The notes under the pieces are model-generated. The model worked only from the letters and a program-made list of their open reading frames with translations. It was not told the DNA's origin and did not search any database. Of a stretch of DNA of 56,419 nucleotides, positions 4,164-39,945 are shown one piece after another (within the stretch, counting starts at the first letter, position 1; each line of letters begins with the position of its first letter). A program made the position numbers and the translations under genes. Source of the DNA: a virus; the IMG/VR virus record IMGVR_UViG_3300006802_000112, positions 1 through 56,419 of that record; one strand, written 5' to 3'.

Positions 4164-4466
4164 ATGGCTGAAAATAGAAAAGAGATATCTTTTAAAATTA
4201 AATTATTGATAATATTTATATCAGCCATATTGTTAGAAGCTAATAGTATAGCTGGAATGAGATTCCTTATAGATAATAATTATGTAGGAATGGCTATATC
4301 TGTTTTTATAACTCCCTTTGTTTGTTTACCAATGAACCACTTTACAATAGAGGTAAAAACATTAAGAGAGAGAATATGGATTGCGTGTGCTTTTTCTACA
4401 GGATTTACATTAGGAGTAATATTAATTAGACCATTCTTTGAATTAGAAGGTGGGGGGTTTTTTTAA
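4164..4466 (+). CDS. Multi-span membrane protein, 100 aa
   Basis: The start is placed at the ATG 1 base after the preceding stop (MAENRK...); an in-frame ATG 30 bases upstream would overlap the zincin gene and add an unlikely extension. Three hydrophobic segments are visible: about residues 14-32 ('LLIIFISAILLEANSIAG'), 41-60 ('VGMAISVFITPFVCLPM') and 73-92 ('WIACAFSTGFTLGVILI'). It could be an inner-membrane effector or a holin-like protein. No holin family is recognised, and its early location argues mildly against a lysis role. Confidence 0.5.
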   Translation: MAENRKEISFKIKLLIIFISAILLEANSIAGMRFLIDNNYVGMAISVFITPFVCLPMNHFTIEVKTLRERIWIACAFSTGFTLGVILIRPFFELEGGGFF

Positions 4467-22541: not shown

Positions 22542-25500
22542 TTAATCCGCTAAGTTAAATAATGTTTTCTGATTAAAGTGTTTATAGGAGTTGATTTGTT
22601 TATCTAAATCTCCCAATTGTTGTTTCCTTTTGAGTATAGTATTTTTTCTTAATTTCTTAGAAAATTCCCACTCTCCAGTTTCTTCATCAACATAGAATAA
22701 ACTACCAACTAGGGATATGGGCTCTATAGCTTCTATGGTTCGTATAGCTACAAGAGGAGATTTTGCTTTAGCAATTAATTCTCTAGGTATACCAAGAAGA
22801 GTTGTTGTATTATATTCTGATACTGTTCTTAAATATGTATATTTAGCAAAATCCTCTACAAATGTGTTATCTTCGTCATCATCTCCATCGTCTAATGAGA
22901 AAATTAATTCACCAAGAAGAAGTAATACTCCCATCAAACCAAATTCATAAACTGATCTTCTTACATTTGTTTTTTGGTCCTCTTTTAATCCTTTAAATAC
23001 TTCTCTTATTCCTTTATAATCATTTTTTCTTATCCCAGAAATATATTCACCAATTAAACCGAACAAAGATGTATAATGACCCTCCTCAAATTTATTTAAA
23101 TCAAAATTATATTGTCTACCTTTAAATCTCTTAGTTAATAATATTGGTAACCAACCAGAGTGCATCATTACGGTATTCAAAAGAACATTTCTTTGAGCCA
23201 TTGTTTGGTCTATCTCATTAATTACACCATCAGCTCTTTCATTTATCTGTCTTGTTCTTCTAGATATTTCTTTAGATATTTTTTTAAATTCCTCTTGTGG
23301 ATTTTGAAATTTATCAGCAAATTTAGAATTATATTTAACTGCTCTATCTGTAATCTCTATGTTATCGTATAAAGAATCTTTAGCATATTTTTTCCACCTA
23401 CTTTCAATTCCTTTCCGGCTAATTGATTCATCTTCAAGCATCATCTTTCTTTTGAACTCGTTAAAATCCATAAACTTACCATCAACAAATCTAGTATCCA
23501 TTAAAGTGAGTACTAAATTCCTTTGAGTAATAGGAACGTTTGCTAATTTTGATAAGGAATAAGCTGATCTACCCAAAAAACGCATAGTCCTAGAGAAAGA
23601 AGAATTTTCTATCTTTGTTCTAAAGTCTGATAACCCAAAATGTTCTGTAAGTAAGAATATTTTAGATTTTTTATCTACTACGCCAGATTCTTTAATATAA
23701 TCGCCCATTAATTTACTTGTAACTGAGAAAGCTCTATTAGCTGAATCTGGACTATATAAATCTTTTGCTAACCTATCTGTGAAGTTAGTTAGTACACCAG
23801 TTGCTGCTGATGTAGCATCTACTATTGGGTTAAATGCTAAGTTTGAAAATCTAACAAATCCTTGGAAAGCATTTATTACACTTGTGAAGTCAACTTTTCG
23901 GCCTAAAATACTAGTTGTCATATTTAGGCTTTGGGTGATTCCATACAAATGATAATCATTAAATTGTTTTATAAACTTGTAATAATTTGATGCTTGTCCT
24001 TTTTTACCAATTTTTAATCTACCAGATACCCCACCTCTTTTTTTAAATTTTTGTTGTGATATTTGATACTGTATAGCTATTAAATCTCTTTCTAATCTAA
24101 CTCTTTCTTTGTATATATTAGATTGTTTGAAATTTAGAAGAGCAGCTTGAATAACATTATTAGATTGCTCTTCTTGAGTTTTTAATTTTTGTTGAAAATA
24201 TTTTGGTATTACGTTAATACCTAATTCTTCAGATAAATTACCTAAACCTTCTATTTGTTCACCATACGTTTTTTCATCAACTCTGTTTGTTAATAAATCC
24301 TTAATTGCATCTTTTGTTGTTGAAATAGCCTTTGTTGATGCTAAACCTGTAATCTTTTCTAATTGAGTTAAAGACATTTGAGGTCTCATATATGGGTTAA
24401 CACTTCCAACATCTTTATGATTTTCAATAGTCATCTCATTAAGTAGAATCATTTGTTTTAACAAATCAAATTCTTCTTTGTTTTTTGTTGCAACTAAACC
24501 TTCTATCCCACTTGTTTCACTATTTATATAATCTTCTTTTTTAATACCATATCTTTCAAAGAATTCATCATTAAGATATTTAGATAATAAAGGTTTTTCG
24601 TAGTAACCATCTTTTTTGTAATTTTTATTTACAAACTCTGCTTTATTAACATCTTGAAGCCATGTATAATCAGGGGTTATCTCTATAAATTCTAAAGCTG
24701 GATACTTTTCTATTAAGCTTTCTTTTTTAGTTTGATCAAATAAGTCAGATGCTTTTATTTTACCACTTTTAATATCGTTAATAACAGTTGTGTATCCAAC
24801 AGGCTCAAATCTTTGGAAATAACTACTTACATTTGCTTTAGCGTACTCGTCTTTAAGTATTTGGATAATCTCATTATTGGTTTTATCTCTTAACTTTCCG
24901 CTAGTGTACATATCATCTATGAAGCTTTCAAAACCTGGCTTTATTCTTGATCTCTTACCTCTTATGATATCTTCTACTTGATAGCCAAACTCTCTAACCC
25001 TTCTCTTTTTCTCTTCAGGCATATGCTCTAAAGCAAAATCAAATAGTGTTTCCCCAGATTCTTCTAACATCATATAAAAATCATCCGTAAGAACTCTAAC
25101 TGTTTGAGCCATTTCGAACTCCTCTTCAAAAAACTCTTTTGGAAGCTCTAATGCTCTTCTAGTAATTATAATTTCATTTTCTATTTCACGAATAGCTTTC
25201 TGTGTTTTGCCATCCATGTTATAGGCATCAGTATTTATTTTTTCTTTGTTATCTCTATTTTGTCTTAGAAGTGCTTTTCTTTTTCTTTGTAGTTCAGTAT
25301 ATTCATCTAATAAATCTTGTTTTTGTCTTTTTTCAGATGGGTCTTCAATCCTATCTACAAATCTTTTTACTCTAGCATCAAATGTTTCTGTTTCACCTAA
25401 TGTTTCATAAAATCTATCATTTAAACCTATTGATGAATTAGATAACATCCAACTAGAAGAATTTCCAAATTTTCTTTCTTGCTCAAGTAATTTTTCTTTA

Positions 25501-28352
25501 AAAGCTAAAGATGCATTTGAAGACTTTTCTTCTGTTCTTAGCATCTCTCGATATATCATATTTAAATTTGACATATCTAAGGCTAATCTAGAATCATCTA
25601 ACAAGTTTTCTTTAGTCATACCTTCGGCTAATGTTATAATATCGCCTGTGTACCCACTATCAACTTTATATGGTAAAGCATCTTTTTCTTCCTGTGTTAA
25701 TTCAGTATATTTAACTACTCTTAGTCCTTCTTTTAGATTTCCATACTCATCATAAGCATCTCTAAATTGTCTAAACTCTCTTAACATATCTAGCTCTGCT
25801 ATTCTTTCTCCTTCTGTTTGAGAGCTTTTATCTATAGTTCCATCTGGCTTTCTAAACTTTCTATTCTCAGCAAATCTTCGACTACTCATGTTTTTTAATA
25901 CAGTCCTTGTGTAGTCTGATAGACCTGCTCTATCATATACTTCTTTCTTTTGTCTTTCGTATTCTTCTGTCATTGGCTTTTCTCTTAAAGCCTTTTTTGC
26001 TTCAGAAAACTTATCTCTAAATTCTGTTAGTTTAGAATCGTTGTTTAGAATCTCTTTTACTGTTTCTTTATTATCTCTTCTCTTTTTTATTTCTTTAGGA
26101 TCGACCTCTAATATTTCTGCTAATATTTTTACACGTTCAGCTTCCAAGTCCTCATCATACTTAACCCAATTTATAGGTGAAATATAGTAATAAGAATTTT
26201 TACCATCACTTGTCTTCATTACAATATTTTGTTGATATTTTTGAAGACCTCTTTCGTATATATTTCTAATTATTGGATTTGCTACTGAAATTGTTTCCTC
26301 ATTAGCTGTATCGTATAATTCTTGAGCTTTTGCTGTTGCTAATCCAATTAAAGCATTATTCATATTAGTGGCAAGACCAAAAGTGGAGGAAAAGAAGGTT
26401 AAATCAACCATTCCACCCTCTACTTGAGCTAAAACTTGATTTTTCTCTTCTTCAGTTAATGACCTGCCCTCTATCTTTTCTTCAACTAATTGTCTAACAT
26501 ATGCCTTATTATCTGTTTCCATTTTTGGAGTAACTCGGCTATGCTTAGAATCTACTTCTTCAATAGATTTAATTGTATCCTTTATTTTTTTCTTTATTAA
26601 GGCATCCCCTTTATAATCTATTTTTTCTAGCTTTAGTCTTGCAGAACGTAGTAAAGGCATTATGTTGGAATCTAATGCTAATAAAGTTATTGAATCAGTT
26701 GTAGAAAATAATTCATTATTTTTTTCTGATTCCGCTATGTTTTTAGCTACTTGATTTTCTAGTGTATTTGCTGTTGCTATTATGGTAGATAAGGAGCTTA
26801 GTATGTCAGACGTTGTCATATCATCGTGTATCTTATCTAACTTAGATTGATTAGGTACTGGTTTATTAAGTATTTGTGTGTGTAAATCTGTTAAAGTTCT
26901 TCTTAATGCTTGTAACTCAGAATCCAAATTAGCTGGGTCCTCTTCTGTTGCATTATAGAAAAAATCTAAACTAGAAAAATCAACATTAAAATCAGTTATA
27001 TTATCATTTAATATACTTTGAGCAATTTTCCTGTTAAGGTCATTTATTACTTGTCTATTATAATCACTTGACCTTCCTAATAACCAATTTGTAAAAGTAT
27101 TCCAAAGGTTTCTTAGTTTTTGTGTTAAAGTTACCTTTTCCTCTGTTTTTCCTTGCTCTAAAAACTGTTCTTTTATTTCTCTTGCTAATACTTTACCTAA
27201 AACTTCTTTCCTAACCTGATCTTCTAATTTATCCCCTTGATAAATGGGATTGCCATTTTCATCCTTTTGTTTGCCATATAGGTCTCTATAGTATTCTGAA
27301 TACTCTTTATATTCTTGTGTAAGATGTACATTTGCTAGAGCAGTTATAATACTATTTTGCTCATTGTAAGAAGCAATAGCTATGTGTGCTACTTCTTCTG
27401 TTAAGTCATCAGTTATATCTCTACCCTCTGATAAAGCTACAACTTTATTTGCTAAATCGGCTATAGCGTTTATATCTGGGTCTTTTCCGTATTTTGTTTT
27501 ATAATTTTTTCTATATTCCTCTAATGTTGTTGTAGAGAATCCCATTCTCTCTAAGAATGAAAATAATGAAGCTTTTATATTATTTACTTCCTCTGGATTT
27601 GAATCCTTTTTTTGACCAGCTTTTAATGGTCTTGGGTTAATAAATTTAGCTTTATATCTAGATATTAAAGAATATGAATTTATAAAGTTGTTATCTTTTA
27701 TTTTTTGAGGTATATCCGCATCTCTAAATACTTCTATTGTCCCATCTTCCCTAACACCAACTACATAGTCTTTTGGGGATGGCATTTCTATTTCACCATC
27801 TTTGTTCACATAGACATTACCCATACCCATTTCAACCATTGCTTCGAACATAAAACCTTTGGCCATTGTTTTTTGGGTAGTTCTAAAATTACCTTTACCT
27901 TTTAATCTTGTAGAGTTATCTTCTTTTACCACTTTTTTAGGTGATAAAAATCCTTGTTCAATTTGAGAAACAATAAAGCTATTCATTGTTCCTTTTGAAA
28001 TATCAAACTTAGCCTTTGGTAAAAATATATCGTTTTTTGGATGTTTAAAACCAATTGTTACTGGTCCTTTTTGACCATCTAATATTAAACTCTCTATATC
28101 TTCAAAGACCTCTCCTTTACTATCTTGATAAAATACTTTTGGTTCTTTTGTATCATATACATTATTCTCAGCATCTTGGAATAATTTTTCCATGCTATCT
28201 GTATAAGAACTAGTCAATACATTAGCAGCTAAATCATTAGTTCCTACAAATACATTTGTTTGTATTTCTTCGAATAACTTAGATTTCTGCCCATTTGGAG
28301 CAAGAACTTCAGTTATGTTATTATTTGAATCTCTTTTAATTGAACAAGCCAT
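22542..28352 (-). CDS. Giant virion-type protein, 1936 aa
   Basis: Near residue 319 lies 'DLTEEVAHIAIASYNEQNS', a degenerate zincin-like element (E-E-x2-H where a protease would have H-E-x2-H), found in this form in large Bacteroidota phage proteins as far as I recall. A long charged, partly coiled-coil middle follows, rich in Lys/Glu. The last 450 residues become amphipathic and hydrophobic: 'NLAFNPIVDATSAATGVLTN' (about 1500), 'VLLNTVMMHSGWLPILL' (about 1730) and 'LMGVLLLLGELIFSL' (about 1800), followed by an acidic 'DDGDDDEDN'. This pattern suits a protein packaged in the head and inserted in the host membrane at injection. No RNA-polymerase metal motif was found. The function is inferred. 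Confidence 0.6.
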   Translation of the reverse strand: MACSIKRDSNNNITEVLAPNGQKSKLFEEIQTNVFVGTNDLAANVLTSSYTDSMEKLFQDAENNVYDTKEPKVFYQDSKGEVFEDIESLILDGQKGPVTIGFKHPKNDIFLPKAKFDISKGTMNSFIVSQIEQGFLSPKKVVKEDNSTRLKGKGNFRTTQKTMAKGFMFEAMVEMGMGNVYVNKDGEIEMPSPKDYVVGVREDGTIEVFRDADIPQKIKDNNFINSYSLISRYKAKFINPRPLKAGQKKDSNPEEVNNIKASLFSFLERMGFSTTTLEEYRKNYKTKYGKDPDINAIADLANKVVALSEGRDITDDLTEEVAHIAIASYNEQNSIITALANVHLTQEYKEYSEYYRDLYGKQKDENGNPIYQGDKLEDQVRKEVLGKVLAREIKEQFLEQGKTEEKVTLTQKLRNLWNTFTNWLLGRSSDYNRQVINDLNRKIAQSILNDNITDFNVDFSSLDFFYNATEEDPANLDSELQALRRTLTDLHTQILNKPVPNQSKLDKIHDDMTTSDILSSLSTIIATANTLENQVAKNIAESEKNNELFSTTDSITLLALDSNIMPLLRSARLKLEKIDYKGDALIKKKIKDTIKSIEEVDSKHSRVTPKMETDNKAYVRQLVEEKIEGRSLTEEEKNQVLAQVEGGMVDLTFFSSTFGLATNMNNALIGLATAKAQELYDTANEETISVANPIIRNIYERGLQKYQQNIVMKTSDGKNSYYYISPINWVKYDEDLEAERVKILAEILEVDPKEIKKRRDNKETVKEILNNDSKLTEFRDKFSEAKKALREKPMTEEYERQKKEVYDRAGLSDYTRTVLKNMSSRRFAENRKFRKPDGTIDKSSQTEGERIAELDMLREFRQFRDAYDEYGNLKEGLRVVKYTELTQEEKDALPYKVDSGYTGDIITLAEGMTKENLLDDSRLALDMSNLNMIYREMLRTEEKSSNASLAFKEKLLEQERKFGNSSSWMLSNSSIGLNDRFYETLGETETFDARVKRFVDRIEDPSEKRQKQDLLDEYTELQRKRKALLRQNRDNKEKINTDAYNMDGKTQKAIREIENEIIITRRALELPKEFFEEEFEMAQTVRVLTDDFYMMLEESGETLFDFALEHMPEEKKRRVREFGYQVEDIIRGKRSRIKPGFESFIDDMYTSGKLRDKTNNEIIQILKDEYAKANVSSYFQRFEPVGYTTVINDIKSGKIKASDLFDQTKKESLIEKYPALEFIEITPDYTWLQDVNKAEFVNKNYKKDGYYEKPLLSKYLNDEFFERYGIKKEDYINSETSGIEGLVATKNKEEFDLLKQMILLNEMTIENHKDVGSVNPYMRPQMSLTQLEKITGLASTKAISTTKDAIKDLLTNRVDEKTYGEQIEGLGNLSEELGINVIPKYFQQKLKTQEEQSNNVIQAALLNFKQSNIYKERVRLERDLIAIQYQISQQKFKKRGGVSGRLKIGKKGQASNYYKFIKQFNDYHLYGITQSLNMTTSILGRKVDFTSVINAFQGFVRFSNLAFNPIVDATSAATGVLTNFTDRLAKDLYSPDSANRAFSVTSKLMGDYIKESGVVDKKSKIFLLTEHFGLSDFRTKIENSSFSRTMRFLGRSAYSLSKLANVPITQRNLVLTLMDTRFVDGKFMDFNEFKRKMMLEDESISRKGIESRWKKYAKDSLYDNIEITDRAVKYNSKFADKFQNPQEEFKKISKEISRRTRQINERADGVINEIDQTMAQRNVLLNTVMMHSGWLPILLTKRFKGRQYNFDLNKFEEGHYTSLFGLIGEYISGIRKNDYKGIREVFKGLKEDQKTNVRRSVYEFGLMGVLLLLGELIFSLDDGDDDEDNTFVEDFAKYTYLRTVSEYNTTTLLGIPRELIAKAKSPLVAIRTIEAIEPISLVGSLFYVDEETGEWEFSKKLRKNTILKRKQQLGDLDKQINSYKHFNQKTLFNLAD

Positions 28353-28378: not shown

Positions 28379-29122
28379 TTAGCAATCTCCTGTACGCTCT
28401 AGGGTTAGACCAGAGGGCGAAACACATGGTGGTGTTGGACAGGTTTCATTATTTGCATAATAATTTGACCCATTAAACTTTGTGCTACCATATTCTGCAC
28501 AAAATACAATTTGAGTAGGGAATTTTGTAAATGGAATAATATATTCTATAGTAGTACCTGTTTCATCTGTATATGTAAAACTACCATCAGCTGAAGAAGA
28601 TGTGGCATCTACTGTTAAAGAATATTGAAATGTCTGTGGTTCTGGTGTAGGATTTGTTGCAGGTATTATAGGACATTCTTTTTCTTCATAACCACACATT
28701 AAATCCTTTTCAGGTTCACATGGTGGTTCGTTAAAATCTCCAAAATCATTGAATATATCTTGGTATGATCTCCTATTTTTAATAATTACCTTTTGTCCAA
28801 CTTTGGTTCCATCAATATCTAAAGAAGTTATATTGAACCCATCAACTCTTTTTATCCTATAGATATTACCCTTATCATCTGTTTTCTTGTGGTGCTTAAC
28901 TACTTTATATAAAATAGAAAAGTTACCCACTTGGATAACATCTCCAACACTTAGAGACTCTCTTGTTCCAATGTAGGATATTCCTTTTTCCTTAAAAATC
29001 TTAGATGTTAATTTTGTTACACCAACCCTTACAGAGGAGACCATTTCTAAGTTATTGAAGGATTTTTGAACTCCTTGCAATCTATTAGACCTCATTATTA
29101 TTTTATCCCCCTCTTTTTCCAT
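28379..29122 (-). CDS. Hypothetical late protein with Cys-rich end, 247 aa
   Basis: The start is placed at ATG (MEKEGDK), because the upstream in-frame GTG sits in a promoter box. The N-terminal half is beta-rich and basic ('SLSVGDVIQVGNFSILYKVV', about residues 60-80). The C-terminal half has many cysteines ('CEPEKDLMCGYEEKECP', 'NETCPTPPCVSPSGL', final 'GDC') and Thr-rich strands, like an adhesin or tail-tip domain. It lies between two giant proteins. It may be a tail component; not proven. Confidence 0.55.
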   Translation of the reverse strand: MEKEGDKIIMRSNRLQGVQKSFNNLEMVSSVRVGVTKLTSKIFKEKGISYIGTRESLSVGDVIQVGNFSILYKVVKHHKKTDDKGNIYRIKRVDGFNITSLDIDGTKVGQKVIIKNRRSYQDIFNDFGDFNEPPCEPEKDLMCGYEEKECPIIPATNPTPEPQTFQYSLTVDATSSSADGSFTYTDETGTTIEYIIPFTKFPTQIVFCAEYGSTKFNGSNYYANNETCPTPPCVSPSGLTLERTGDC

Positions 29123-29127
29123 AGCCA

Positions 29128-29135
29128 CAAATTTA
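29128..29135 (-). promoter_or_regulatory. Bacteroidota -7 box before the 247-aa gene
   Basis: On the minus strand TAAATTTG fits TAnnTTTG, ending 5 bases before the ATG at 29122, again an almost leaderless position. The upstream -33 element is weak (TTTT instead of TTG), so this call is less sure than those on the + strand. Confidence 0.35.
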
Positions 29136-29175: not shown

Positions 29176-32100
29176 CTATGATTGACATTCAACTTTATTT
29201 CTAGTTTCTTCTTCTGTTGGAGTAAGCATTTCAAAAGACGATTCTATAGCTGTAGCTACTTCGTTTTTATAATTTGTTATTGTGTTTGGTATGTTTTTTA
29301 TGGATGGAATTTCCATTTGAAAAGCTACTACAGGAGATATTGCATCTTCGGATGTTAATTCTGTTCTAACCCACTCATTTCCTTTATTATCAGTAATAGT
29401 TTCTATGTTTTCACCTCTTTCTTTTTTAAAGAAATCAATTGTTTTTTCATACCTTTTTAGTATACCTTGATAATCTTCGTCTATATCTTCTATACTAAAT
29501 TCATCGATATCTGCTATTTCTTCATACTGATCAGGTTGTTGTAATGTTTCAGGGTATACATTATATTCTGTAGTATATACAGTGTAATCATCCTCATATA
29601 ATACGTTAATACCTTGATTTTCTAAAGTTGTGGATATACCTTCAGACCATATGAAATCAAAATGATATTCTCTTATAGCATCATATATTTTATCTTTATC
29701 TAGTCTATATGTTTCTGTTTCTTCATCTATTAATTCGGCTATATCTTCCAATTCTGGGAGTAAATAATCGTAGTAGGAAGATTCTTTAAATTCATCCCAA
29801 GATTCTTTTGTAAATAAGTCCTTATCTTTTAACTCAGAATAAATTTCGCTAGAATCATTGTCAGCGTAAAAATCGGCTTCTTGGTTAACAAAATCATCTA
29901 TATTAAATTGATTAATTTTATCAGTAGGAATTGCTTCAAAATCAGTAGAGTTAGCATTAAAAACGGTGTGGTCTTCTCCTAGGTATTTTATAATATCACC
30001 ATTTTCTAATTCATCGGTATTCCTACTGCTCACTATGTCATAAGGTTGTAAATTAAATTCATCAGCTGACATATAGCCTTCAATTAACGCTAATGTTCTA
30101 GGTGTTGGTATTGCTAGTGTTTCCATACCTAATTCTGCGTTTCTTTTAATTTCCTCTCTTAATAAACGCTCTGTATAATTTTTACGGTGAGCAATGAATT
30201 GTTTATCTCTTAAACTTGCGTTGTCAAGTAGGCTATTTTTTAAGTTTGGTAAATCTTTTTTAGCGTTGAAGTATTTAGTGTATAATTGTTTATCTGGCTT
30301 AATTCCAGGTAAAATATTTTTTTCATAGTAGGAAACAGCATCTTCTAGTGAGGTAAATATTTCTCTACCTAATCTATACTCGTATGATTTTTTTTGCTTA
30401 TTAAATTTCTCTGTTATAAAGCTATAGGGCATTAGATAACCTTTGCCTTCTAGTTGATAATCTTGCACTTCTACTGGTTCTATTTTTTCACCTAAAGCTA
30501 AAGATACTAATGATTTAGCATAGCCCTCTTGTTCTTTTAATCTTCTTTGTACTTTTTCTTTTTGTTTTTCTATAGCATCAAAGCCTCTATTTTCTTTTTT
30601 TGCTTCCTCTATTGCCTTATTTAGGTTTTTTATAGCCTCTTTGTCCTCATTAATTGATTTAAATGCCTCTGATATGTCATTATAAAGGTCTTTAACTATA
30701 TACTCCTCACTACCCTCAAAGCTAGAATCAATATCATTGATTAACTTTTCTGTCTCTTTTATTTTTTTATAAATAGGCTTTTGTTTAGAATTTAAGTCCT
30801 TAGGATTATTTTCATAGTTAGTTAGAACCATGTCTACAGCCTTAGCTTTTTGATAAGAGTCCGATTGCATTTCAGCAACATAAACATCTTTTGTTCCAGC
30901 TTCTCTCCAAACTCTAGTGTGACCAAACTGCCCACTATTTATCTTTCTAGTTTTATTGTAGTTTTCAATCCAATTATTCGTCATCTCTAAAGACGGTGAC
31001 ATAAAGTATGCTTCCTCTTCTATATTCTCTGGTGTTATTCTAGAGTTTCTATCTACAACGTAGTTTATGCCAGATTCTCTATTTGTTGTAACTCTAAATT
31101 CTATACCATCTAAATTCTTTTCAAAATCTCTCTTAAAGTGCCCGTCTATTTGATGATCGAGTTTTGAGTTATAAATATTTGTACTAGAAAATCCAACATC
31201 CACTCCTACATTGTCTGAACCATAATCTGAATAGGTTGTACTTTCTATGACATCTAGTGGCATTATTCTAGCGTTCACTTCTCCTCTAAATTCATCAAAA
31301 GGTATTTGTGTTTTTCCTCTAAAGCCTTCTAAATTTAAGACCTCTCTAATTATTGCTTTTTCAATTGCTTTTGTTGTAGGTTGTTTTAAAATTTGATTAA
31401 TTGTTTGAATATTAACCATTTTACCTTTTTTCTTAGCAAACATCTCATCTAATAATGGTTGTATTGTGTATTCAGATGTTTGGAATTTAGTGCCACTTAA
31501 CATGTCAATAGCGACAGCTTCAGCAAATTGTTCTAGGGTTATATTCTCTAGCTCTTCTGCTGTGTATTGTGTGATTCCTAAAGCGTTTTTAATTGAGTTC
31601 CATAAATCAGTCAGCCATTCTCTAATAGCAGATTTTCTTTTTTTGTTGACTACTAATTCTCCCTTATCACCAATTAGTTGTGTTAAGGCTTCTTCGTATA
31701 ATCTTTCACCTTCTAAATTTGGTTGAGATTCTTTTACTTTATCTATATACTCTTGACCCTGTTCTTGTACTAACTGTATTCCTTTTCTATAAAGGTTTGG
31801 TCTATTTTCTTTGGCCCAAAAATTAAATAGGTGGCCAAACTCATGTATTTGTGTATTTAGTATTCTTGGGTTGTCTGTATTTAAATATACATCTCCATTG
31901 TATACAAATCCATTAGGGGTAATAGTTAAAGATTCGGTAGATAATGATAAATTTATTGGGTCATACACAATACCAAAGGAATCCATAACTTCTTCCTCTA
32001 GCCTATCTCCTATAAACTTATCTAAAATTGATACTGTATTTGGATCAAAAACTAGATACTGTGTAGTGGTTCCTATAGGGTAATTTTTTTCATATGTATT

Positions 32101-34692
32101 TTCTAATATTAATCCTTTTATTTGACCATTTTTCTTTTTCTCTAGTAAATCATCATATCTTTCTTGTCCTATTACTTCAATCAACTCCTGTGTTCCTATA
32201 GGTGTTGTTTTTTTCATGTCTATAGTCTCAAAACCAGATTCATCTATCTTAGCCTTAAATAAGGTAGAGCCTTTGAACATACCTGAAAAACCAGCTGCTA
32301 TAGTTTTGTTTCCAAAATAAGCCCCTGATAATAACTCTCCATATTTTATCTGATTTTTAAAATCTTTTTTCTTAAGATTTTTAGCTGGATTTTGAGTTCC
32401 ATGCCATGCTACTATTTGTTTTCTTACCTCCTCTGTTAATCCGATTTCTTCTAATTTAGCATCTATCTCTTCAGAAGTCATTGAATAAACGTTGTTTGCT
32501 AATCCTGTTTCCTCTAACTTAGATAGAACTGCGTCTGTTAAAGCTTTTGGTGTAACATTTACTCTCTCAAGTTCTTGAGTTTGAAATAAAATAGTTGTAG
32601 GAGATGTCTCTGCTTTTTCTAATCTCTCATTAAACTCTTGGAAAGACATTTTTTGAGAGTCTAAACCATTTTGATATTTGTCTAAAATAGCTTGTGCTTC
32701 ATCTTGGTTGTATTCAAAGTTCTCTATAGCTGTATTGTATACAGGTCTATTTACTTCACTTATTTTTAAATAGATGTCAGCATTTAAAGATTTTCCAACT
32801 TTTCTATATAGTATACCTTCATTATTTACAAACATATCAGATTGAGGGTTTGTAATAACATAATTCCCATCAACTACTATTTCTGATTTATATGCTTGAA
32901 TAGACTCTGGGTTATTAATAGCTTGAGAATCTTCTAGTAAATACCCTTCGCCATTATTAAACATAAATTCGTAGGAAGTTCCTTTTTTAAGCTTTAAATA
33001 ATCTTCTAACTCTTGTTGCATTTCAATACCATCAAGTGATGATATATACCCATCAATTTCAATGTCGGAGCTAGTAAATTTAAATTTAGATAAAGTTTCT
33101 CTATATATTGGTGTATCGTTTAACTTTTCATTTAATACATAATTATAGAAATCAGACACAAAATCTGTTTTAAGGTAAACCTCATCTGTTCTAATTGTAG
33201 ATAGTTTTCTATAATCTTCTTTTTGAATTGGATTGTGATCAAAAACTAATTGATACAAAGATATCTCTTCTTGAAATTCAGAGACTATTCCAGTTTCTCT
33301 AGAGTTTACAAAGTTAGTAATGCCCTTTAAAACTTCTACTTTATTATCTGGATTCTTATAGTCTTTTACAGTAATATATTGAGATGGTATAGTCATTTTA
33401 CCCTCTACTAACTGTGTGTATATATAATCATAAGCGGCTACTGTATCAGTTAGTCTTTCTACTTTATGATACATGTTTTCCTCAAGTTTTATTAAACCAT
33501 GCTCTCTATATAATTCAGCATCTGTTTTTCTAGAATTAAGGTGTACTATATTTAAGCCTTTATATTTCTCTGGGATTACTCTTGTAATTTTATTCTCTGA
33601 TGGAGTAAATATTTGATCATGTGCTCTAGCAAATTCTTGTATAGTTATTTCACTAGTATTTCTAATCATGTTCTTTAAAGGAGTTATCAAAGATAGTACT
33701 TGTTCTCTTTCATTATATAACTCTGATAGACCTACTAAATCTATATTATTTTTTGCTAATGTTTGTTCTACTTCTCTTAGCACATTTCTTATTTGTGTAG
33801 GATTGTTAAACCATTTTTCAGGGGTTATCTCCTCTAAAAAATCTAAGTCAGATTCAATATCTACAATATCAAAAGTAGCAGGTATAGTATTTAATAGTTG
33901 ATCATAGTAAGAAACATTTTCACTTGTTAATGTTTCACCAACAAAAGATAGTATAGGTAGTTTAGAAAGCTTACTAAGTCTTTCAGTCTCTTTATTTCTA
34001 AACGCCTCGTCATTATTAAATTTATCTTTATATGATTGGAAGTCTGAATTTTGAACAGCTTCTTCTATTGCTTCAGGAGTAAATATATCAGTCTTAGATA
34101 TGATGTCATTGTCAATATCAGTTCTAGATAATTGAAACGATGTACCTAAAATTGTTTTTTTACTCTCGTCAATTAATGCTACATCATCTTGAGATGGTTC
34201 AACCAAAAAGTTTTTACCCTTTTGTAAATCCCCTTCTATCTTATGTAAGAGGTATTCTATTTCAACTAAGTTAATATTTTTTAAATCTTCTTCATTGTAT
34301 ATCCCACTATCTAGTGCAGCTACGCTATCTAATTCAATAAACCCATTTGGTTTAAATATCTTATTTAATTTTGTACTTAGCTCGTTTAAATCTCTTATAT
34401 TATTAGCTTCCATTATAGAAGTTACCTCATACTTTTCTGAAGGAGATAATTCTGAATTTTCAACATCTAATATATTTACATATGCAACAACATCTTCAAC
34501 AGACATGTTATCAGATCTTCCGTTAAAAGCCTTTTTAAAATCATCTGTGTGAGTCATAGCCCAATAATCTAAGGCTAATCGATCATTTTGGAAATAAGAC
34601 AATAAATCAAGGTACAAATTTGATACTTTACCTTGATTATCTAGTGCTAAAACACCACTATCTGTTCTTACAATTTTACAAGCTACTCCCAT
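29176..34692 (-). CDS. Giant polyvalent protein: ART-like, zincin and QSD-type domains, 1838 aa
   Basis: Three domains of the 'polyvalent protein' class can be read. (1) About residues 757-880, 'IVAWHGTQNPAKNL', 'GAYFGNKTIAAGFSG' and 'TTQYLVFDPNTVSIL' follow the ADP-ribosyltransferase-like (ART-PolyVal) layout. (2) About 940-1010, 'NTQIHEFGHLFNFWAKE' has a true H-E-x2-H with a downstream 'YEEALTQLIGDKGE' that may give the third ligand. (3) About 1245-1290, 'FGHTRVWREAGTKDVYVAEM' followed by Gln-Ser-Asp-Ser resembles the E-L-Q-S-D domain that recurs in such proteins, continuing to 'ELGMETLAIPTPRTL'. The polyvalent class is thought to be injected with the DNA to modify or cleave host defence proteins. 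Targets are unknown. The N-terminal 700 residues have no assigned fold. Confidence 0.7.
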   Translation of the reverse strand: MGVACKIVRTDSGVLALDNQGKVSNLYLDLLSYFQNDRLALDYWAMTHTDDFKKAFNGRSDNMSVEDVVAYVNILDVENSELSPSEKYEVTSIMEANNIRDLNELSTKLNKIFKPNGFIELDSVAALDSGIYNEEDLKNINLVEIEYLLHKIEGDLQKGKNFLVEPSQDDVALIDESKKTILGTSFQLSRTDIDNDIISKTDIFTPEAIEEAVQNSDFQSYKDKFNNDEAFRNKETERLSKLSKLPILSFVGETLTSENVSYYDQLLNTIPATFDIVDIESDLDFLEEITPEKWFNNPTQIRNVLREVEQTLAKNNIDLVGLSELYNEREQVLSLITPLKNMIRNTSEITIQEFARAHDQIFTPSENKITRVIPEKYKGLNIVHLNSRKTDAELYREHGLIKLEENMYHKVERLTDTVAAYDYIYTQLVEGKMTIPSQYITVKDYKNPDNKVEVLKGITNFVNSRETGIVSEFQEEISLYQLVFDHNPIQKEDYRKLSTIRTDEVYLKTDFVSDFYNYVLNEKLNDTPIYRETLSKFKFTSSDIEIDGYISSLDGIEMQQELEDYLKLKKGTSYEFMFNNGEGYLLEDSQAINNPESIQAYKSEIVVDGNYVITNPQSDMFVNNEGILYRKVGKSLNADIYLKISEVNRPVYNTAIENFEYNQDEAQAILDKYQNGLDSQKMSFQEFNERLEKAETSPTTILFQTQELERVNVTPKALTDAVLSKLEETGLANNVYSMTSEEIDAKLEEIGLTEEVRKQIVAWHGTQNPAKNLKKKDFKNQIKYGELLSGAYFGNKTIAAGFSGMFKGSTLFKAKIDESGFETIDMKKTTPIGTQELIEVIGQERYDDLLEKKKNGQIKGLILENTYEKNYPIGTTTQYLVFDPNTVSILDKFIGDRLEEEVMDSFGIVYDPINLSLSTESLTITPNGFVYNGDVYLNTDNPRILNTQIHEFGHLFNFWAKENRPNLYRKGIQLVQEQGQEYIDKVKESQPNLEGERLYEEALTQLIGDKGELVVNKKRKSAIREWLTDLWNSIKNALGITQYTAEELENITLEQFAEAVAIDMLSGTKFQTSEYTIQPLLDEMFAKKKGKMVNIQTINQILKQPTTKAIEKAIIREVLNLEGFRGKTQIPFDEFRGEVNARIMPLDVIESTTYSDYGSDNVGVDVGFSSTNIYNSKLDHQIDGHFKRDFEKNLDGIEFRVTTNRESGINYVVDRNSRITPENIEEEAYFMSPSLEMTNNWIENYNKTRKINSGQFGHTRVWREAGTKDVYVAEMQSDSYQKAKAVDMVLTNYENNPKDLNSKQKPIYKKIKETEKLINDIDSSFEGSEEYIVKDLYNDISEAFKSINEDKEAIKNLNKAIEEAKKENRGFDAIEKQKEKVQRRLKEQEGYAKSLVSLALGEKIEPVEVQDYQLEGKGYLMPYSFITEKFNKQKKSYEYRLGREIFTSLEDAVSYYEKNILPGIKPDKQLYTKYFNAKKDLPNLKNSLLDNASLRDKQFIAHRKNYTERLLREEIKRNAELGMETLAIPTPRTLALIEGYMSADEFNLQPYDIVSSRNTDELENGDIIKYLGEDHTVFNANSTDFEAIPTDKINQFNIDDFVNQEADFYADNDSSEIYSELKDKDLFTKESWDEFKESSYYDYLLPELEDIAELIDEETETYRLDKDKIYDAIREYHFDFIWSEGISTTLENQGINVLYEDDYTVYTTEYNVYPETLQQPDQYEEIADIDEFSIEDIDEDYQGILKRYEKTIDFFKKERGENIETITDNKGNEWVRTELTSEDAISPVVAFQMEIPSIKNIPNTITNYKNEVATAIESSFEMLTPTEEETRNKVECQS

Positions 34693-34704
34693 TATATTTT
34701 TTTA

Positions 34705-37700
34705 TTAACACTCATTATTTTTTTCTTCATCTATCTTAGCTCTTTCCTCTGGTGATAATTTTAAGTATTTCAAGGCATCTGAATCTCGTTGAGCTTCTCC
34801 GATATTTTCACTACTTAGTATATTGTCTGGTTTTGCTAAGTTAACCTGGCTATAGTTAAGTAGTAGTTTTGGAGAATGTATTGGATTTGTTAAATCGAAA
34901 TTAACTCTCACCTCATTTTTTAGAGTTTCAATCATATCAGTATCTTTTTTAACCCAATTATCTAAATCGTAAAAATACTTCATATTTTGCAATTCTGCAA
35001 GTTTCTGATTAAAAAACTCTTGTGTATGAGTTTCTGTGTCTAGTAAAGAAAAACCTTTTCCAGATACTTTTATGTCTACTCCCTTATCTGCTAAATATCT
35101 ATTTAAAGCGAATATCTTATCATCCATGTTTGTATCAGAGTTCCATATATCTTGGAAATCCTGTGTGCTAGAAGACATTCTCTCATTTACATTAACAGGT
35201 ATTGCTATGTCATGAGTTCCTTTTCTAATCACAACAAAGGGAACTTTTTTACCACTTTTCTTTAACTTTGAAAGATAAGATAATCTAGGTGATGTTCCGT
35301 TTTTAGTTTTAACCTCATCTCCTTGGATATATCCTAAATCAATTACATTCTTAGCCTCTTCTTCTGAAATTTCTTTCTCTCTTACTACTAATCCAGTTTC
35401 TGTTTCATAGAAATTATAATTAATCCTACCTAATAATGTTTTACCAACAGTTATTGTAGGCTCACTAAATATTATGTTTCCATCTTTATCTAAAGATTCT
35501 ACCCTAACATCAATCTTACCTTCTCCTCTTAAAAACTCTTCGAATTGAGCATTGTTATCTACTATTGCGGACCTTAAAGCTTCAAATGTTAAATCGTTAT
35601 CTTTATTTTTTCTTCCATTGTTGAAGCCTTTTAAAGTACCAACGTGAGCTTTTTGAGTATTTCCTTCTGAATCTTTTACTCTAGATGTTGCTCTAATTAA
35701 TATTTTCTTTTTTATTTTATCTTTAACTTCAGCTTTTTGTTCTTCAGTTTCAGCAGAATTATATTCGTCTATTAACTCTCTATTATATGGGTCATTAGGG
35801 TCTATTTCTAATGTTATCTCTGCTCCTTGTTCTAAATCATATATAGCTGTTATATCATGACCTTCTGAATTATTAAACTCTTCAGAGAATTGACTCTTTA
35901 ATGGATATAGTCTATTTGGGTCACCTTCCTTTGCTGAAGGTAGCATTTCTAGGACTATACTAAATGTTCCCCCATCAGGGAGTATTCTTAAATTTGATTC
36001 TTTATTAATTCTGTTTATAGTCCCTAAAGAAAGTATAATATTACCTTTTTCATCATATGAAATAGTTGATGGATCTATTCTAAATCCAATCATTTCTTGT
36101 AACTGTTCCAAATTAATGTTATGTAATTTTACACCATCCTTTGTTCCAGATGCAACTACTACATCATATGTTAATGAGTATTCATAATTTGCATTAGTAT
36201 TACTCTCTGGGAAATACTCTTCTTGTACTTCTGTGTCATTTTTTTCAACTGTAGATACGTCACCCTCTTTAGCTACTTCTATTTCTTCAAGTAAAGCTTT
36301 TTCTCTGACTAAATCACTTAATCTAAATCCTTGATAAATAGCACCTGTAAAAAGTAACCATTGGTCTATCTCTCTTTCTAATGCTTCAAATTCTAACTTT
36401 TCTTGATTGGTTAGATTTCTATTTTCTTTTTCTTTAGCTAATTCTAGGTATCTTAAATAGTCCTCTGATTGAGTTATTTTAAATGGTTTCTTTAGAGCTT
36501 CTATTTCTTCTTCGATAATTTTTATATCTTCATCAAGTCTAGCTAACTCTTCTTCTCTAGCTTCTTTTGTATTATCTTCTTCTAAGGCTTTTTCTAAATT
36601 GGCTATATCATTCTTTATGTCTTCGACCATTTCTTCATTACCTACTCCCTCTCTAACTCTTCTTTCTTCTTCAGCTAAATCCTGTTTTAATGTTTCTAAA
36701 AGTAATTCTTCTGTTGTTACTTTTTCTGTTTTGGCTCTTTCTTTTAATTTTTCTAACGCCTCTTTTCTTTCGTTTAATTGTTCTATTCTTTCAGCGTTAA
36801 TGTCTTCTCTAGCCATTACATTATCTATAGCTTCTGTCATTTTATCTATAGCTTCATTGATTTTGTCTAAAGATGTTAAATCTTCTAATTTTAAATCTAA
36901 AGCTTGTTTTAGAACTATAGTATCTCCATCTAAAGGTGTTCTTTTTTCTGATGACTTTTCAGCTGAAGTTTTTATTACTTCGTTTTGTTCTATTATTGCC
37001 TTGGCTACAGCTGTCGCTTCTGCTTGAGCGATAAGTAACCTAAACATAGATTCAATCTTGTATTTTTGTCTTTCAGGTATTTCTTTATTTTCCTCTAATA
37101 CCTCCTTGAATACTTCTTCTGTTTTTTGGTCGATAAGCTCATTTCTTTTTAGCCCAACTCTTTTTAAAGAATTATCTATTGTATCGTTATTTTCTCTGAC
37201 TATTTTTTTAAACTCTTCAGACATTTTATACTTCTTACCAACCATTTTCTCTAAGAATGTTCTACCATCTTTACTAGAAAAATAATCTGTCTCATATAAA
37301 TCCCTTAACATTAAGTCGGTATTTCTATGGTGATTGGCTAATGTTTTAAATTGAGTAATAAGGTAATCTAAAGATTCCGCTTCAAACTTGTTTCCTGATT
37401 TTTCTAAATCTTCAGCATATTTATCTAGTTTTGAAAGTTCTTCAATGGCTGTAGCCATATCCATTTCCTCAAGAGATAAAGATTTTAATTTTTCATTAAA
37501 TGAGAAATTTGATTTCTTAAATTCGCTATTAAGAACCTCATCTAAATTATCAATCTCTCTTTGTAGTTGTGCTGTTTGTTGATTTACTAATACTAATTTT
37601 TCAGAATAATCTTTTACTTTTTTATCTAAAGTCTCTGTTTTTAAATCTCTTTTTAATCTACTAGGTCTTTGATTAGTTGTTAACCAAGATCCATATTCTC

Positions 37701-39945
37701 TAGCTTTTTCTTTTAAGTAATCTAGTCTTTTTTGTTTTTGTTTTCTTTCTGCTATTTTAGATTTTTGTTCTTCAGAAAGATTTTCAAAAAACATCATATG
37801 GCTAAATAAGCCCTCTTGTCCAACAATTTGATCTATTTGTTTTGCTACTTGTTCGGCAGCATCAATTGCTCTTTCTCCTAAATATATATTATATGTTACA
37901 GCATCTTTAATTTGCCTTTTTTCACCATTTGGAAGTTCAATAGAGTCAATTCCTAGAGCATCTGTTACCTTGTTTGCGAATGTGTAACTTTTTAAGTTTT
38001 GTTTAAATTGTGATTTTAAATTTGCTTTATAATCTTCTACTGATATGTTTGCATTATCTAACATTTCTTTTGAAGATTTATCAAGCTCCATGTTATCAAT
38101 AACAGCCTCATAGTCTTGAATCATATCAGATTTAGACTTTACTCCTTCCTGTGATCTTATAAATTGATAATTTGTGTAAGCATCCTCTACTGTTAATTCT
38201 ATGTCTGTTTCAGCTCCAGATTGTGTAAGGTTTACAAAATTTCTTATTGAAGATGCTCTATTTAAATTTGTTATATTTTCTATACCTGAATTAGCATATT
38301 CAAGTTGTTTTTCTTTTTGTTGTTGTAAAGATTTTCTGCTTAATTTTCCAAAGCCTTCGAATGCAGTACCCTCTTTTATTGATTTTGGATTAGATACAGC
38401 TCCACCGACCATACCAATAAGCATTCCTATAACAACTTCTTTTAAACCTGCTGTTTCTGTATATTGTTTTTCAAATGCATATGGCAACATACTAAACATA
38501 GATTCTGCTTCAGTAGCAGTTGGGTCATACATTGTTTGAAGATATGATTGCATACTACTTCCAGCTACACCTTGTAATCCTTCTTCAAATACACCTTCAT
38601 AAAATGGTTTTCTAAGTATAAGATAAGAGTTTCCTAAGAATTTTTGTGCTTTATTTGCACCTCTCATTGACATTTTACCTAGCTTATCAGTTTTTGTCCC
38701 AAGCCCAATTATTCTATTTCCTATTTTGTTTGTATGGTCTAGAGCTTGTTTTATGCCTGGTATTTTACCAATTCCTAATGACTTACCAAACATAACAGAG
38801 TTTGACACTCCTAATATTGCCATGTTAGATGTAAAGACTGAATTACCAGCGTTAACAGCTGAATTCATAAATTCACTTATTTCTTCTGGGCTAGGTTCTC
38901 TACCATTTTTTTCTTTAAATTCACTATAAAAAGTATCTACACTTTGATGTAAATTATGTCTAGCTTCCATTCCAGCTTCAAATCCAGATGACCTAGCTAA
39001 AAAAGCAGCTGTGGATGTTATATCTCCTACTTGTTTTCCAAAAATGGCTCTATGGCCACCTCTTATTATATCTCTACCTTTATTGAATTTTGTGGCATCA
39101 CCTATAGCTTTAAGTGTTTTGCCTAAAACAGTTTTTTTAGCAGTTGTTTTTACTCCTTGCTTTATTCCTTGTTTAACTGCAGATTTCAATACAGTTGAAG
39201 CACCTGCTTTAGCTAACGAAACACCTAGAGATGAGCCTCCTGTTGCTATTCCTATTGCAACCTCTGGTAATACAGCTCCACCTACAAATGCTAAACCTCC
39301 AGCAAAATCGTTAGCCCAAAAATTTGCTGTTCCCATGCTTTCTAATACTCCCATGGCTCTTTCTTCATCGGAGTAGTAATTTGGCATTGCGTTATCTAGT
39401 TGCTTATTTATATCATCTAAATAATTTGAAAATTCATTGTCCCATACTTGATTAAACTCTCCATTTGCTATACCATTGTATATACCATAACCTAAACCAA
39501 CTGTTGCATCAAGTGCATAAATTGGTACTTTAATCATGTTTTTTGTTACACCATTTATCCATTTTTGCCAAGTTGACTGATCTTGTGCTAACCTATCTTC
39601 GTTGCCAAAAGCACCTCTGTATGTATCATATTTTTTTACATAACTTCCATCACTTAATCTATCATATATTGCTTCTAATGGAACATCTCTTTTGGCTACA
39701 TCGAATTGTCTAAAACCTTCTCTTTCAGGTAATTTTGATGGTGCATAGAATTGTTCTGAGATTGCTGATTCTTTTTGTTTTTTATCAAGTCCTAGATAAT
39801 CCCTAATGCTATCATCTAAAAATGGACTTTCTTTTCCACTTTCTGTAAATTTACTAGTCTGAGTAAATCCAAATGGACTTTCTTTTCCACTTTCTGTAAA
39901 TTTGCTAGTCTGAATAAATCCGAAACCTTTATCGTCTATTGCCAT
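34705..39945 (-). CDS. Giant virion-type protein with membrane segments and coiled coil, 1746 aa
   Basis: The N-terminus has a fresh in-frame duplication: 'GFIQTSKFTESGKESPF' and 'GFTQTSKFTESGKESPF' back to back (residues 8-41). Hydrophobic or Gly/Ala-rich regions at about 205-260 ('GGLAFVGGAVLPEVAIGIAT') and 495-520 ('VVIGMLIGMVGGAVS') could span a membrane. Residues about 1000-1170 form a long Glu/Lys coiled coil. The rest is beta-rich and acidic. The combination of pore-like parts and size resembles injected core proteins of short-tailed phages. No enzyme motif was found. It lies 20 bases after the 1070-residue gene and before the polyvalent protein. Confidence 0.6.
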   Translation of the reverse strand: MAIDDKGFGFIQTSKFTESGKESPFGFTQTSKFTESGKESPFLDDSIRDYLGLDKKQKESAISEQFYAPSKLPEREGFRQFDVAKRDVPLEAIYDRLSDGSYVKKYDTYRGAFGNEDRLAQDQSTWQKWINGVTKNMIKVPIYALDATVGLGYGIYNGIANGEFNQVWDNEFSNYLDDINKQLDNAMPNYYSDEERAMGVLESMGTANFWANDFAGGLAFVGGAVLPEVAIGIATGGSSLGVSLAKAGASTVLKSAVKQGIKQGVKTTAKKTVLGKTLKAIGDATKFNKGRDIIRGGHRAIFGKQVGDITSTAAFLARSSGFEAGMEARHNLHQSVDTFYSEFKEKNGREPSPEEISEFMNSAVNAGNSVFTSNMAILGVSNSVMFGKSLGIGKIPGIKQALDHTNKIGNRIIGLGTKTDKLGKMSMRGANKAQKFLGNSYLILRKPFYEGVFEEGLQGVAGSSMQSYLQTMYDPTATEAESMFSMLPYAFEKQYTETAGLKEVVIGMLIGMVGGAVSNPKSIKEGTAFEGFGKLSRKSLQQQKEKQLEYANSGIENITNLNRASSIRNFVNLTQSGAETDIELTVEDAYTNYQFIRSQEGVKSKSDMIQDYEAVIDNMELDKSSKEMLDNANISVEDYKANLKSQFKQNLKSYTFANKVTDALGIDSIELPNGEKRQIKDAVTYNIYLGERAIDAAEQVAKQIDQIVGQEGLFSHMMFFENLSEEQKSKIAERKQKQKRLDYLKEKAREYGSWLTTNQRPSRLKRDLKTETLDKKVKDYSEKLVLVNQQTAQLQREIDNLDEVLNSEFKKSNFSFNEKLKSLSLEEMDMATAIEELSKLDKYAEDLEKSGNKFEAESLDYLITQFKTLANHHRNTDLMLRDLYETDYFSSKDGRTFLEKMVGKKYKMSEEFKKIVRENNDTIDNSLKRVGLKRNELIDQKTEEVFKEVLEENKEIPERQKYKIESMFRLLIAQAEATAVAKAIIEQNEVIKTSAEKSSEKRTPLDGDTIVLKQALDLKLEDLTSLDKINEAIDKMTEAIDNVMAREDINAERIEQLNERKEALEKLKERAKTEKVTTEELLLETLKQDLAEEERRVREGVGNEEMVEDIKNDIANLEKALEEDNTKEAREEELARLDEDIKIIEEEIEALKKPFKITQSEDYLRYLELAKEKENRNLTNQEKLEFEALEREIDQWLLFTGAIYQGFRLSDLVREKALLEEIEVAKEGDVSTVEKNDTEVQEEYFPESNTNANYEYSLTYDVVVASGTKDGVKLHNINLEQLQEMIGFRIDPSTISYDEKGNIILSLGTINRINKESNLRILPDGGTFSIVLEMLPSAKEGDPNRLYPLKSQFSEEFNNSEGHDITAIYDLEQGAEITLEIDPNDPYNRELIDEYNSAETEEQKAEVKDKIKKKILIRATSRVKDSEGNTQKAHVGTLKGFNNGRKNKDNDLTFEALRSAIVDNNAQFEEFLRGEGKIDVRVESLDKDGNIIFSEPTITVGKTLLGRINYNFYETETGLVVREKEISEEEAKNVIDLGYIQGDEVKTKNGTSPRLSYLSKLKKSGKKVPFVVIRKGTHDIAIPVNVNERMSSSTQDFQDIWNSDTNMDDKIFALNRYLADKGVDIKVSGKGFSLLDTETHTQEFFNQKLAELQNMKYFYDLDNWVKKDTDMIETLKNEVRVNFDLTNPIHSPKLLLNYSQVNLAKPDNILSSENIGEAQRDSDALKYLKLSPEERAKIDEEKNNEC
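39820..39921 (-). repeat. 51-base tandem repeat in the 1746-aa gene
   Basis: Two adjacent copies (39820-39870, 39871-39921) differ at two positions and encode 17 residues each. The multiple-of-three period keeps the frame. Confidence 0.85.

What the first reader, a model, noticed from the sequence alone, without database searches (positions are those of the whole stretch)
29176..34692. 1838-residue polyvalent protein joins an ADP-ribosyltransferase-like domain, a zincin and a QSD-type domain
The order 'AWHGTQNP...YLVFDP', then 'HEFGH', then 'EMQSDS' follows the domain set described for polyvalent proteins of phages and conjugative elements (Iyer and colleagues). Such proteins are proposed to enter the cell with the DNA and act on host defences. 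The first 700 residues are uncharted and may hold further effectors.
Basis: partly seen in the sequence, partly recalled or inferred. Interest (0 to 1): 0.65.

Follow-up and report, generated by a model that had tools for sequence, protein, structure and literature searches.

The report
Middle link of a cysteine-capped phage cargo chain
The protein is a package of probable host-attacking enzymes built into the middle of three giant virion proteins of a crAss-like phage, and the cysteines found only at the ends where these proteins would meet suggest that the phage links its injected cargo end to end by disulfide bonds.

Summary
The 1838-aa ORF is real (minus strand; all four motifs present; dN/dS 0.12 against an 82%-identical relative). 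The zincin is well supported, the QSD region moderately, and the ART domain only by motif and position. The 'uncharted' first ~655 residues are not further effectors. They are a conserved cargo core that stands alone (517-843 aa) in many crAss-like phages and was detected by MS in the virion of Cellulophaga phage phi4:1. The effector cassette is a plug-in between this core and a conserved C-terminal tail; relatives carry other cassettes (GNAT, RadC, LPD23), most with a zincin. The larger find is a cysteine rule. The upstream giant neighbour (A, crAss001 gp47 family) has one Cys, at its C-terminus; this protein (M) has two, at residues 5 and 1836; the downstream neighbour (B, gp49 family) has one, at its N-terminus. 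No exception was found: A C-terminus 45/45, M both ends 28/28, B N-terminus 53/53, outer ends 0/88. The rule then held in ten named genomes, where the RNA polymerase is the middle link. Where links are fused, the junction cysteines are gone. Best reading: A-M-B are linked head to tail by disulfides as one ejected string. The linkage is inferred and untested.

The parts
29176..34692 (-). P0001, the finding: middle link (M) of the cargo chain, 1838 aa, only two cysteines (C5, C1836)
34498..34692 (-). N-terminal acceptor cap, residues 1-65 (C5 at 34678-34680), shared with the downstream giant protein (B family) and crAss001 gp49
   Evidence: cap profile of B finds M N-termini to E 2e-9; cap profile of M finds B to E 2e-12 and crAss001 gp49 at 1e-7; AF2 blocks of 66-87 pLDDT over residues 1-60
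32728..34692 (-). conserved cargo core, residues 1-655, stand-alone protein in other crAss-like phages
   Evidence: hmmsearch and alignments; AF2 model pLDDT 84.7, pTM 0.76; protein in the same slot in phi4:1 detected by MS/MS
31978..32436 (-). ART-like segment, residues 753-905 (AWHGTQNP ... YLVFDP)
   Evidence: same position as ART-PolyVal of L059; hhalign P 0.01; not modelled by AF2, pLDDT about 25
31483..31977 (-). zincin-like metallopeptidase, residues 906-1070; HEFGH at 31831-31845
29308..31335 (-). QSD-type domain, residues 1120-1795; EMQSDS at 30856-30873
   Evidence: aligned with L012 and L064; AF2 mostly 60-90 pLDDT, with lower-confidence stretches
29179..29307 (-). conserved C-terminal tail, residues 1796-1838, with C1836 (29185-29187)
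   Evidence: tail motif shared with relatives that have little or no payload, e.g. L013 and L037; Cys in 28/28
34705..39945 (-). first link (A), 1746 aa, crAss001 gp47 family; single Cys is the last residue (codon 34708-34710)
22542..28352 (-). last link (B), 1936 aa, crAss001 gp49 family, phrog_37651 virion structural protein; single Cys at residue 3 (28344-28346)

Best explanation
P0001 is the middle link of a three-part virion cargo string of a crAss-like phage. Shown: its core (1-655) and C-terminal tail are a conserved virion-cargo scaffold, and an effector cassette (ART-like segment, zincin, QSD domain) has been inserted between them. Shown: the three neighbours A, M and B have cysteines only at the ends where consecutive proteins would meet (A C-terminus; M both ends; B N-terminus). 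Proteins that follow a break also carry a shared ~70-aa N-terminal cap, and the junction cysteines are absent where links are fused. Inferred: in the mature virion the C-terminal tail of each link docks on the cap of the next and is locked by a disulfide, giving one covalent string (A 1746 + M 1838 + B 1936 = 5520 aa in the window). The string is ejected in order through the tail, then reduced in the host cytoplasm. The zincin may cut the released link into working units, and the ART-like and QSD parts act on the host early in infection.
For: Cys counts with no exception in IMG/VR loci: A C-terminus 45/45 and N-terminus 0/36; M 28/28 at both ends; B N-terminus 53/53 and C-terminus 0/52. Internal Cys 2, 7 and 12 in 59.7, 34.5 and 95.7 kaa, against 0.37% in other ORFs. 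The rule held in ten reference genomes examined afterwards: phi14:2 (g067 only C1797, g066 RNAP only C3 and C2179, g065 only C3; all three noted as MS/MS-detected); cr128_1, cr6_1, cr52_1; DAC15, LMMB, Rudgehvirus, Fpv2, ProJPt-Bp1, cr1_1. Fusions lack the junction cysteines: Fpv2 4401-aa A+RNAP has one Cys, at 4400; Rudgehvirus 4098-aa RNAP+B has C3 and no Cys near its C-terminus; L029/L031/L032 A+M, L045 and L052 M+B. Fusions also lose the cap. Four-link loci L044 and L058 fit. Caps are related across families. crAss001 gp47, gp49 and gp50 are virion cargo by MS and are proposed to be ejected partly unfolded; disulfides are seen elsewhere in that virion. Cassette insertion.
Against: No disulfide has been observed: the cargo is not resolved in the crAss001 map. 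A thiol-mediated metal site or homodimers remain possible. Gut crAss-like phages live in anoxic surroundings, and their links tolerate some internal cysteines (crAss001 gp50 C1334; LMMB; ProJPt-Bp1). L016 breaks the no-internal-Cys part (9 Cys). No virion data exist for this phage. The ART call is weak.
Confidence: 0.6

Rival explanations
1. P0001 is simply a phage polyvalent protein of the kind described by Iyer and colleagues: packaged alone, injected, cut by its zincin, its domains acting on host defences. The terminal cysteines have another, minor role.
For: Zincin, ART-like and QSD regions next to virion genes; Iyer et al. describe this theme and propose zincin self-processing.
Against: It does not explain the exceptionless Cys rule shared with neighbours that have no such domains, nor the loss of Cys and cap on fusion. 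The cassette is optional: the same slot protein lacks it in many phages.
Confidence: 0.2
2. The terminal cysteines make homodimers or anchor each cargo protein to a portal or tail protein rather than to the next cargo protein.
For: A single terminal Cys can give a homodimer; disulfides are known in the crAss001 tail and portal vertex.
Against: The two outer ends lack Cys (0/36 and 0/52), and fusion of neighbours removes both Cys of that junction only. Anchors to other partners would not track gene fusion.
Confidence: 0.12
3. The terminal cysteines bind a metal or carry a covalent modification at a non-covalent docking site between consecutive links.
For: A shared cap starts at the N-terminal Cys; a non-covalent junction would also be lost on fusion.
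Against: No other conserved ligand was noticed near the cap Cys or in the tails, which vary widely except for the Cys; this was judged by eye, not tested.
Confidence: 0.08

Closest known systems
Crassvirus virion cargo proteins (crAss001 gp47, gp49, gp50; phi14:2 g067, g066 RNAP, g065)
   Same: A and B of the window are homologues of gp47 and gp49; same cargo block and the same terminal-Cys rule.
   Different: The middle link here is the P0001 family with an effector cassette, not a recognisable RNA polymerase; only the N-terminal cap gives a match to the phi14:2 RNAP (E 3.5e-5). No Cys rule was found in the papers searched.
Cellulophaga phage phi4:1 gp037 / phi17:2 gp38 (517 aa virion structural protein)
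   Same: Same gene slot between the A and B homologues; homologous core (hmmsearch E 3e-15); terminal Cys pair C4 and C516.
   Different: No effector cassette.
Phage polyvalent proteins (Iyer et al. 2017, PMC5512222)
   Same: Zincin, ART-like and other domains in one giant protein next to virion genes.
   Different: The effectors are inserted into a conserved virion-cargo scaffold with Cys-capped ends; canonical EIQSDWHQ polyvalent proteins are nearly Cys-free throughout (105 of 116).
Tenacibaculum phage Gundel_1 gp074 (Pachyviridae)
   Same: Zincin region 41% identical; annotated structural protein.
   Different: The rest is unrelated by sequence; it has no Cys at all.

Membership tests
Phage polyvalent proteins (Iyer et al. 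2017) | two or more unrelated effector or enzymatic domains in one polypeptide | tested here: met
   zincin and QSD region by homology; ART-like by position
Phage polyvalent proteins (Iyer et al. 2017) | encoded among virion late genes | tested here: met
   synteny with phi4:1 genes noted as MS/MS-detected virion proteins
Phage polyvalent proteins (Iyer et al. 2017) | packaged and injected with the DNA | not testable with these tools
   only by analogy: phi4:1 gp037 and crAss001 cargo found in virions
ART-PolyVal (PF18760) | profile match above the curated cut-off | tested here: not met
   no match for P0001 whole or sliced; L059, a relative, passes at 84.5 bits
ART-PolyVal (PF18760) | catalytic triad and ART fold | tested here: inconclusive
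Zincin-like metallopeptidase | HExxH plus a downstream zinc-ligand E on the next helix | tested here: met
   HEFGH 950-954 and E1000/E1001 conserved in relatives; activity untested
Canonical EIQSDWHQ family | sequence homology beyond the E-x-Q-S-D motif | tested here: inconclusive
   hhalign P 0.006, probability 6%
Crassvirales (phage lineage) | conserved cargo genes in the crassvirus order | tested here: met
   A, M and B synteny and homology with phi17:2, crAssE-Sib and crAss001
Crassvirales (phage lineage) | terminase, major capsid protein and portal of crassvirus type | not tested
   the 56-kb linear record appears to be a fragment; these genes were not looked for systematically
Cys-capped cargo chain (proposed here) | Cys at A C-terminus, both M ends and B N-terminus; none at the outer ends | tested here: met
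   window: A C1746 only, M C5 and C1836 only, B C3 only
Cys-capped cargo chain (proposed here) | disulfide between consecutive links | not testable with these tools
   needs virion biochemistry

The most novel reading that the evidence does not exclude
Crassviruses and some relatives load their giant ejected proteins, the virion RNA polymerase included, as one disulfide-linked head-to-tail string that is threaded into the host in order and falls apart on reduction in the cytoplasm. The middle link has become a plug-in carrier for effector cassettes.
Probability: 0.55. Interest if true: 0.9.

Novelty: new variant of a known kind. Interest (0 to 1): 0.8.

Why it matters
It is not known how crassviruses, the most abundant viruses of the human gut, deliver several hundred-kDa proteins, among them their RNA polymerase, in order through a narrow tail. 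An exceptionless terminal-cysteine rule that disappears on gene fusion suggests a simple covalent answer, and it can be tested with a non-reducing gel of phages already in culture. It also shows where a phage can insert injected effectors, gives a sequence rule for finding cargo links whose bodies are unrelated, and marks P0001-like slots as places to look for new anti-host enzymes.

Tried and rejected
(1) Whole-protein Pfam, PDB-sequence and PHROG searches: nothing useful for P0001. (2) xFQ punctuation of domain boundaries as protease sites: FQ falls at 703, 1070 and 1791, and LFQ flanks the extra module of L001, but LFQ is not enriched in the slot family (9 observed, 6.2 expected). In EIQSDWHQ proteins the excess comes mostly from PLFQ, 15 observed against 0.8 expected. 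Not claimed. (3) First hhalign run used a global mode by mistake; repeated locally. (4) AF2 of residues 640-1838 on a shallow alignment gave pLDDT 56.8 and no ART model. (6) A D.DGD motif search for RNA polymerase was uninformative. (7) Search for an earlier report of the Cys rule: none seen in the papers searched. The phi14:2 RNAP paper is not held and is the main gap. (8) Considered a generic end effect of Cys-poor virion proteins: rejected because the outer ends of A and B have none.

Full report
WHAT WAS CHECKED. The window is one 56.4-kb IMG/VR virus record. A relative in another contig (L001) is 82% identical over the full length, with dN/dS 0.12, so this is a real protein under purifying selection.

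PHAGE AND NEIGHBOURS. The two giant neighbours identify the phage. The upstream one (34705-39945, called A) matches crAss001 gp47, phi17:2 gp39 and crAssE-Sib WOZ57301. The downstream one (22542-28352, called B) matches crAss001 gp49, phi17:2 gp36 and WOZ57323. Gene order from 46008 down to 22542 equals phi17:2 gp41 to gp36. The finding, M, sits in the slot of phi17:2 gp38 / phi4:1 gp037. The phi4:1 record notes this 517-aa protein, and its A and B, as found in virions by MS/MS. In crAss001 the A and B homologues and the RNA polymerase gp50 are virion cargo by MS and are thought to be ejected partly unfolded (PMC10172136).

THE FIRST 655 RESIDUES. A profile of the M core finds one protein between A and B in most related loci. 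It stands alone at about 500-850 aa in most. In others it is expanded to 1017-2571 aa. The alignment shows that the core and a C-terminal tail of about 40 residues are conserved and that the extra sequence lies between them in P0001, L012, L064, L014, L015 and (a small GNAT-like piece) L037. In L016-L019, L022, L026 and L059 the extra sequence lies between the first ~65 residues and the core. So the N-terminal region is a cargo scaffold, not a store of further effectors.

THE CASSETTE. A zincin profile (P0001, L001, Gundel_1 gp074, ctfjg026) finds most of the large expanded slot proteins at E below 1e-24, not L014, L016 or L026. L059 carries a clear ART-PolyVal (1.6e-23) directly before its zincin, as in P0001. 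L012 has a weak ART-PolyVal and GNAT, L014 GNAT, L016 RadC, and L019, L022 and L059 LPD23, with L064 weak. The QSD domain is shared with L012 and L064. A DNA pattern for EIQSDWHQ hits at least 120 IMG/VR sites, but homology of that family with the P0001 domain rests on order of motifs and a weak hhalign score. The ART assignment of P0001 is the weakest: no profile match, Q878 where an acidic residue is usual in such enzymes (from general knowledge of ART motifs), and no model. Synonymous divergence from L001 is lower in the zincin and first QSD part (dS 0.4-0.5) than in the core (1.5), which suggests more recent exchange of the cassette.

THE CYSTEINE RULE. P0001 has two cysteines in 1838 residues, at 5 and 1836. 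A has one, the last residue. B has one, at position 3. Across the IMG/VR loci, counted by script with non-identical ends: A C-terminus 45/45, A N-terminus 0/36; M both ends 28/28; B N-terminus 53/53, B C-terminus 0/52. Internal cysteines are nearly absent (2, 7 and 12 in 59.7, 34.5 and 95.7 kaa; all seven of M come from L016), against 0.37% in other ORFs. The sequences are related, so these counts are not independent events, but the ends themselves do not align between distant members. Neighbouring virion proteins p1070, p873, p971 and p988 have no cysteine at all, so a terminal Cys is not a general virion trait.

TEST ON REFERENCE GENOMES. The rule came from the IMG/VR loci, phi17:2, crAssE-Sib and crAss001. 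It was then tested on ten named genomes. phi14:2: g067 C1797 only; g066, the virion RNA polymerase, C3 and C2179 only; g065 C3 only. DAC15 and cr128_1: same layout, with some internal Cys in the polymerase. In phages where A and the polymerase are one protein (Fpv2, cr1_1, cr6_1, cr52_1, ProJPt-Bp1) the fused protein has a C-terminal Cys and no N-terminal one, and B has the N-terminal one; in Fpv2 the only Cys of 4401 residues is number 4400. In Intestiviridae, where the polymerase and B are one protein (LMMB, Rudgehvirus), A ends in Cys and the fusion starts with C3 and has no C-terminal Cys. Fusions inside the window's own clade behave alike: L029, L031 and L032 (A+M), L045 and L052 (M+B). 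They have also lost the N-terminal cap: the match starts at profile position 222-224, 59 and 94. Loci with four links (L044, L058) have two consecutive middle proteins, each with both terminal cysteines; in L044 the zincin is on its own link.

THE CAP. Profiles of the first 75 residues of B find the N-termini of M, and the reverse, at E down to 2e-9 and 2e-12. They also find crAss001 gp49 and middle links whose bodies are unrelated, while A gives almost nothing. Links that follow a break thus carry an acceptor cap around their Cys; the tails of the preceding link vary but end in Cys.

MECHANISM. Shown: the rule, the cap, the loss of both on fusion, the cargo setting. Inferred: a disulfide between the tail of one link and the cap of the next, formed in or around the mature virion, ordered ejection as one string, and release by reduction in the host cytoplasm. 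Disulfides elsewhere in the crAss001 virion are documented. The zincin may then separate core and effectors, as Iyer et al. proposed for polyvalent proteins. The anoxic life of gut hosts is a caveat.

NOVELTY. As a polyvalent protein P0001 is a new variant of a known kind. No report of the cysteine rule was seen in the searchable papers, but the phi14:2 polymerase paper is not held. If the covalent string is real it would be a new way of delivering virion proteins.

Noticed in passing
L101-L220 (IMG/VR loci with EIQSDWHQ): Phage polyvalent proteins with EIQSDWHQ are almost free of cysteine: 16 Cys in 148 kaa (105 of 116 proteins have none) against 6.3 per 1000 in other ORFs of the same contigs. 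This could serve as a signature of injected proteins.
   Followed up: partly
L101-L220: PLFQ occurs 15 times against 0.8 expected in these proteins; in the cases looked at it lies near the end of the QSD domain.
   Followed up: partly
L007:33086-33931 and 33831-39488: In crAssE-Sib the N-terminal cap of B, with its Cys, is in a separate overlapping ORF from the body of B: a frameshift, a split gene or a sequencing error.
   Followed up: no
window 28379-29128 (-): A small Cys-rich protein (249 aa, 7 Cys, the last residue a Cys) is encoded between M and B; it is not a chain member by the rule and its role is unknown.
   Followed up: no
L001 residues 703-806: The close relative carries an extra ~103-aa module bounded on both sides by LFQRDT, at the start of the cassette.
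   Followed up: partly
L226:32333-34918 (-): In CrAssphage LMMB a further cargo-region protein two genes upstream of A also ends in Cys (KQSCR).
   Followed up: no
L222, L224: cr6_1 and cr52_1 have many in-frame stops in the annotated giant genes, consistent with stop-codon reassignment.
   Followed up: no
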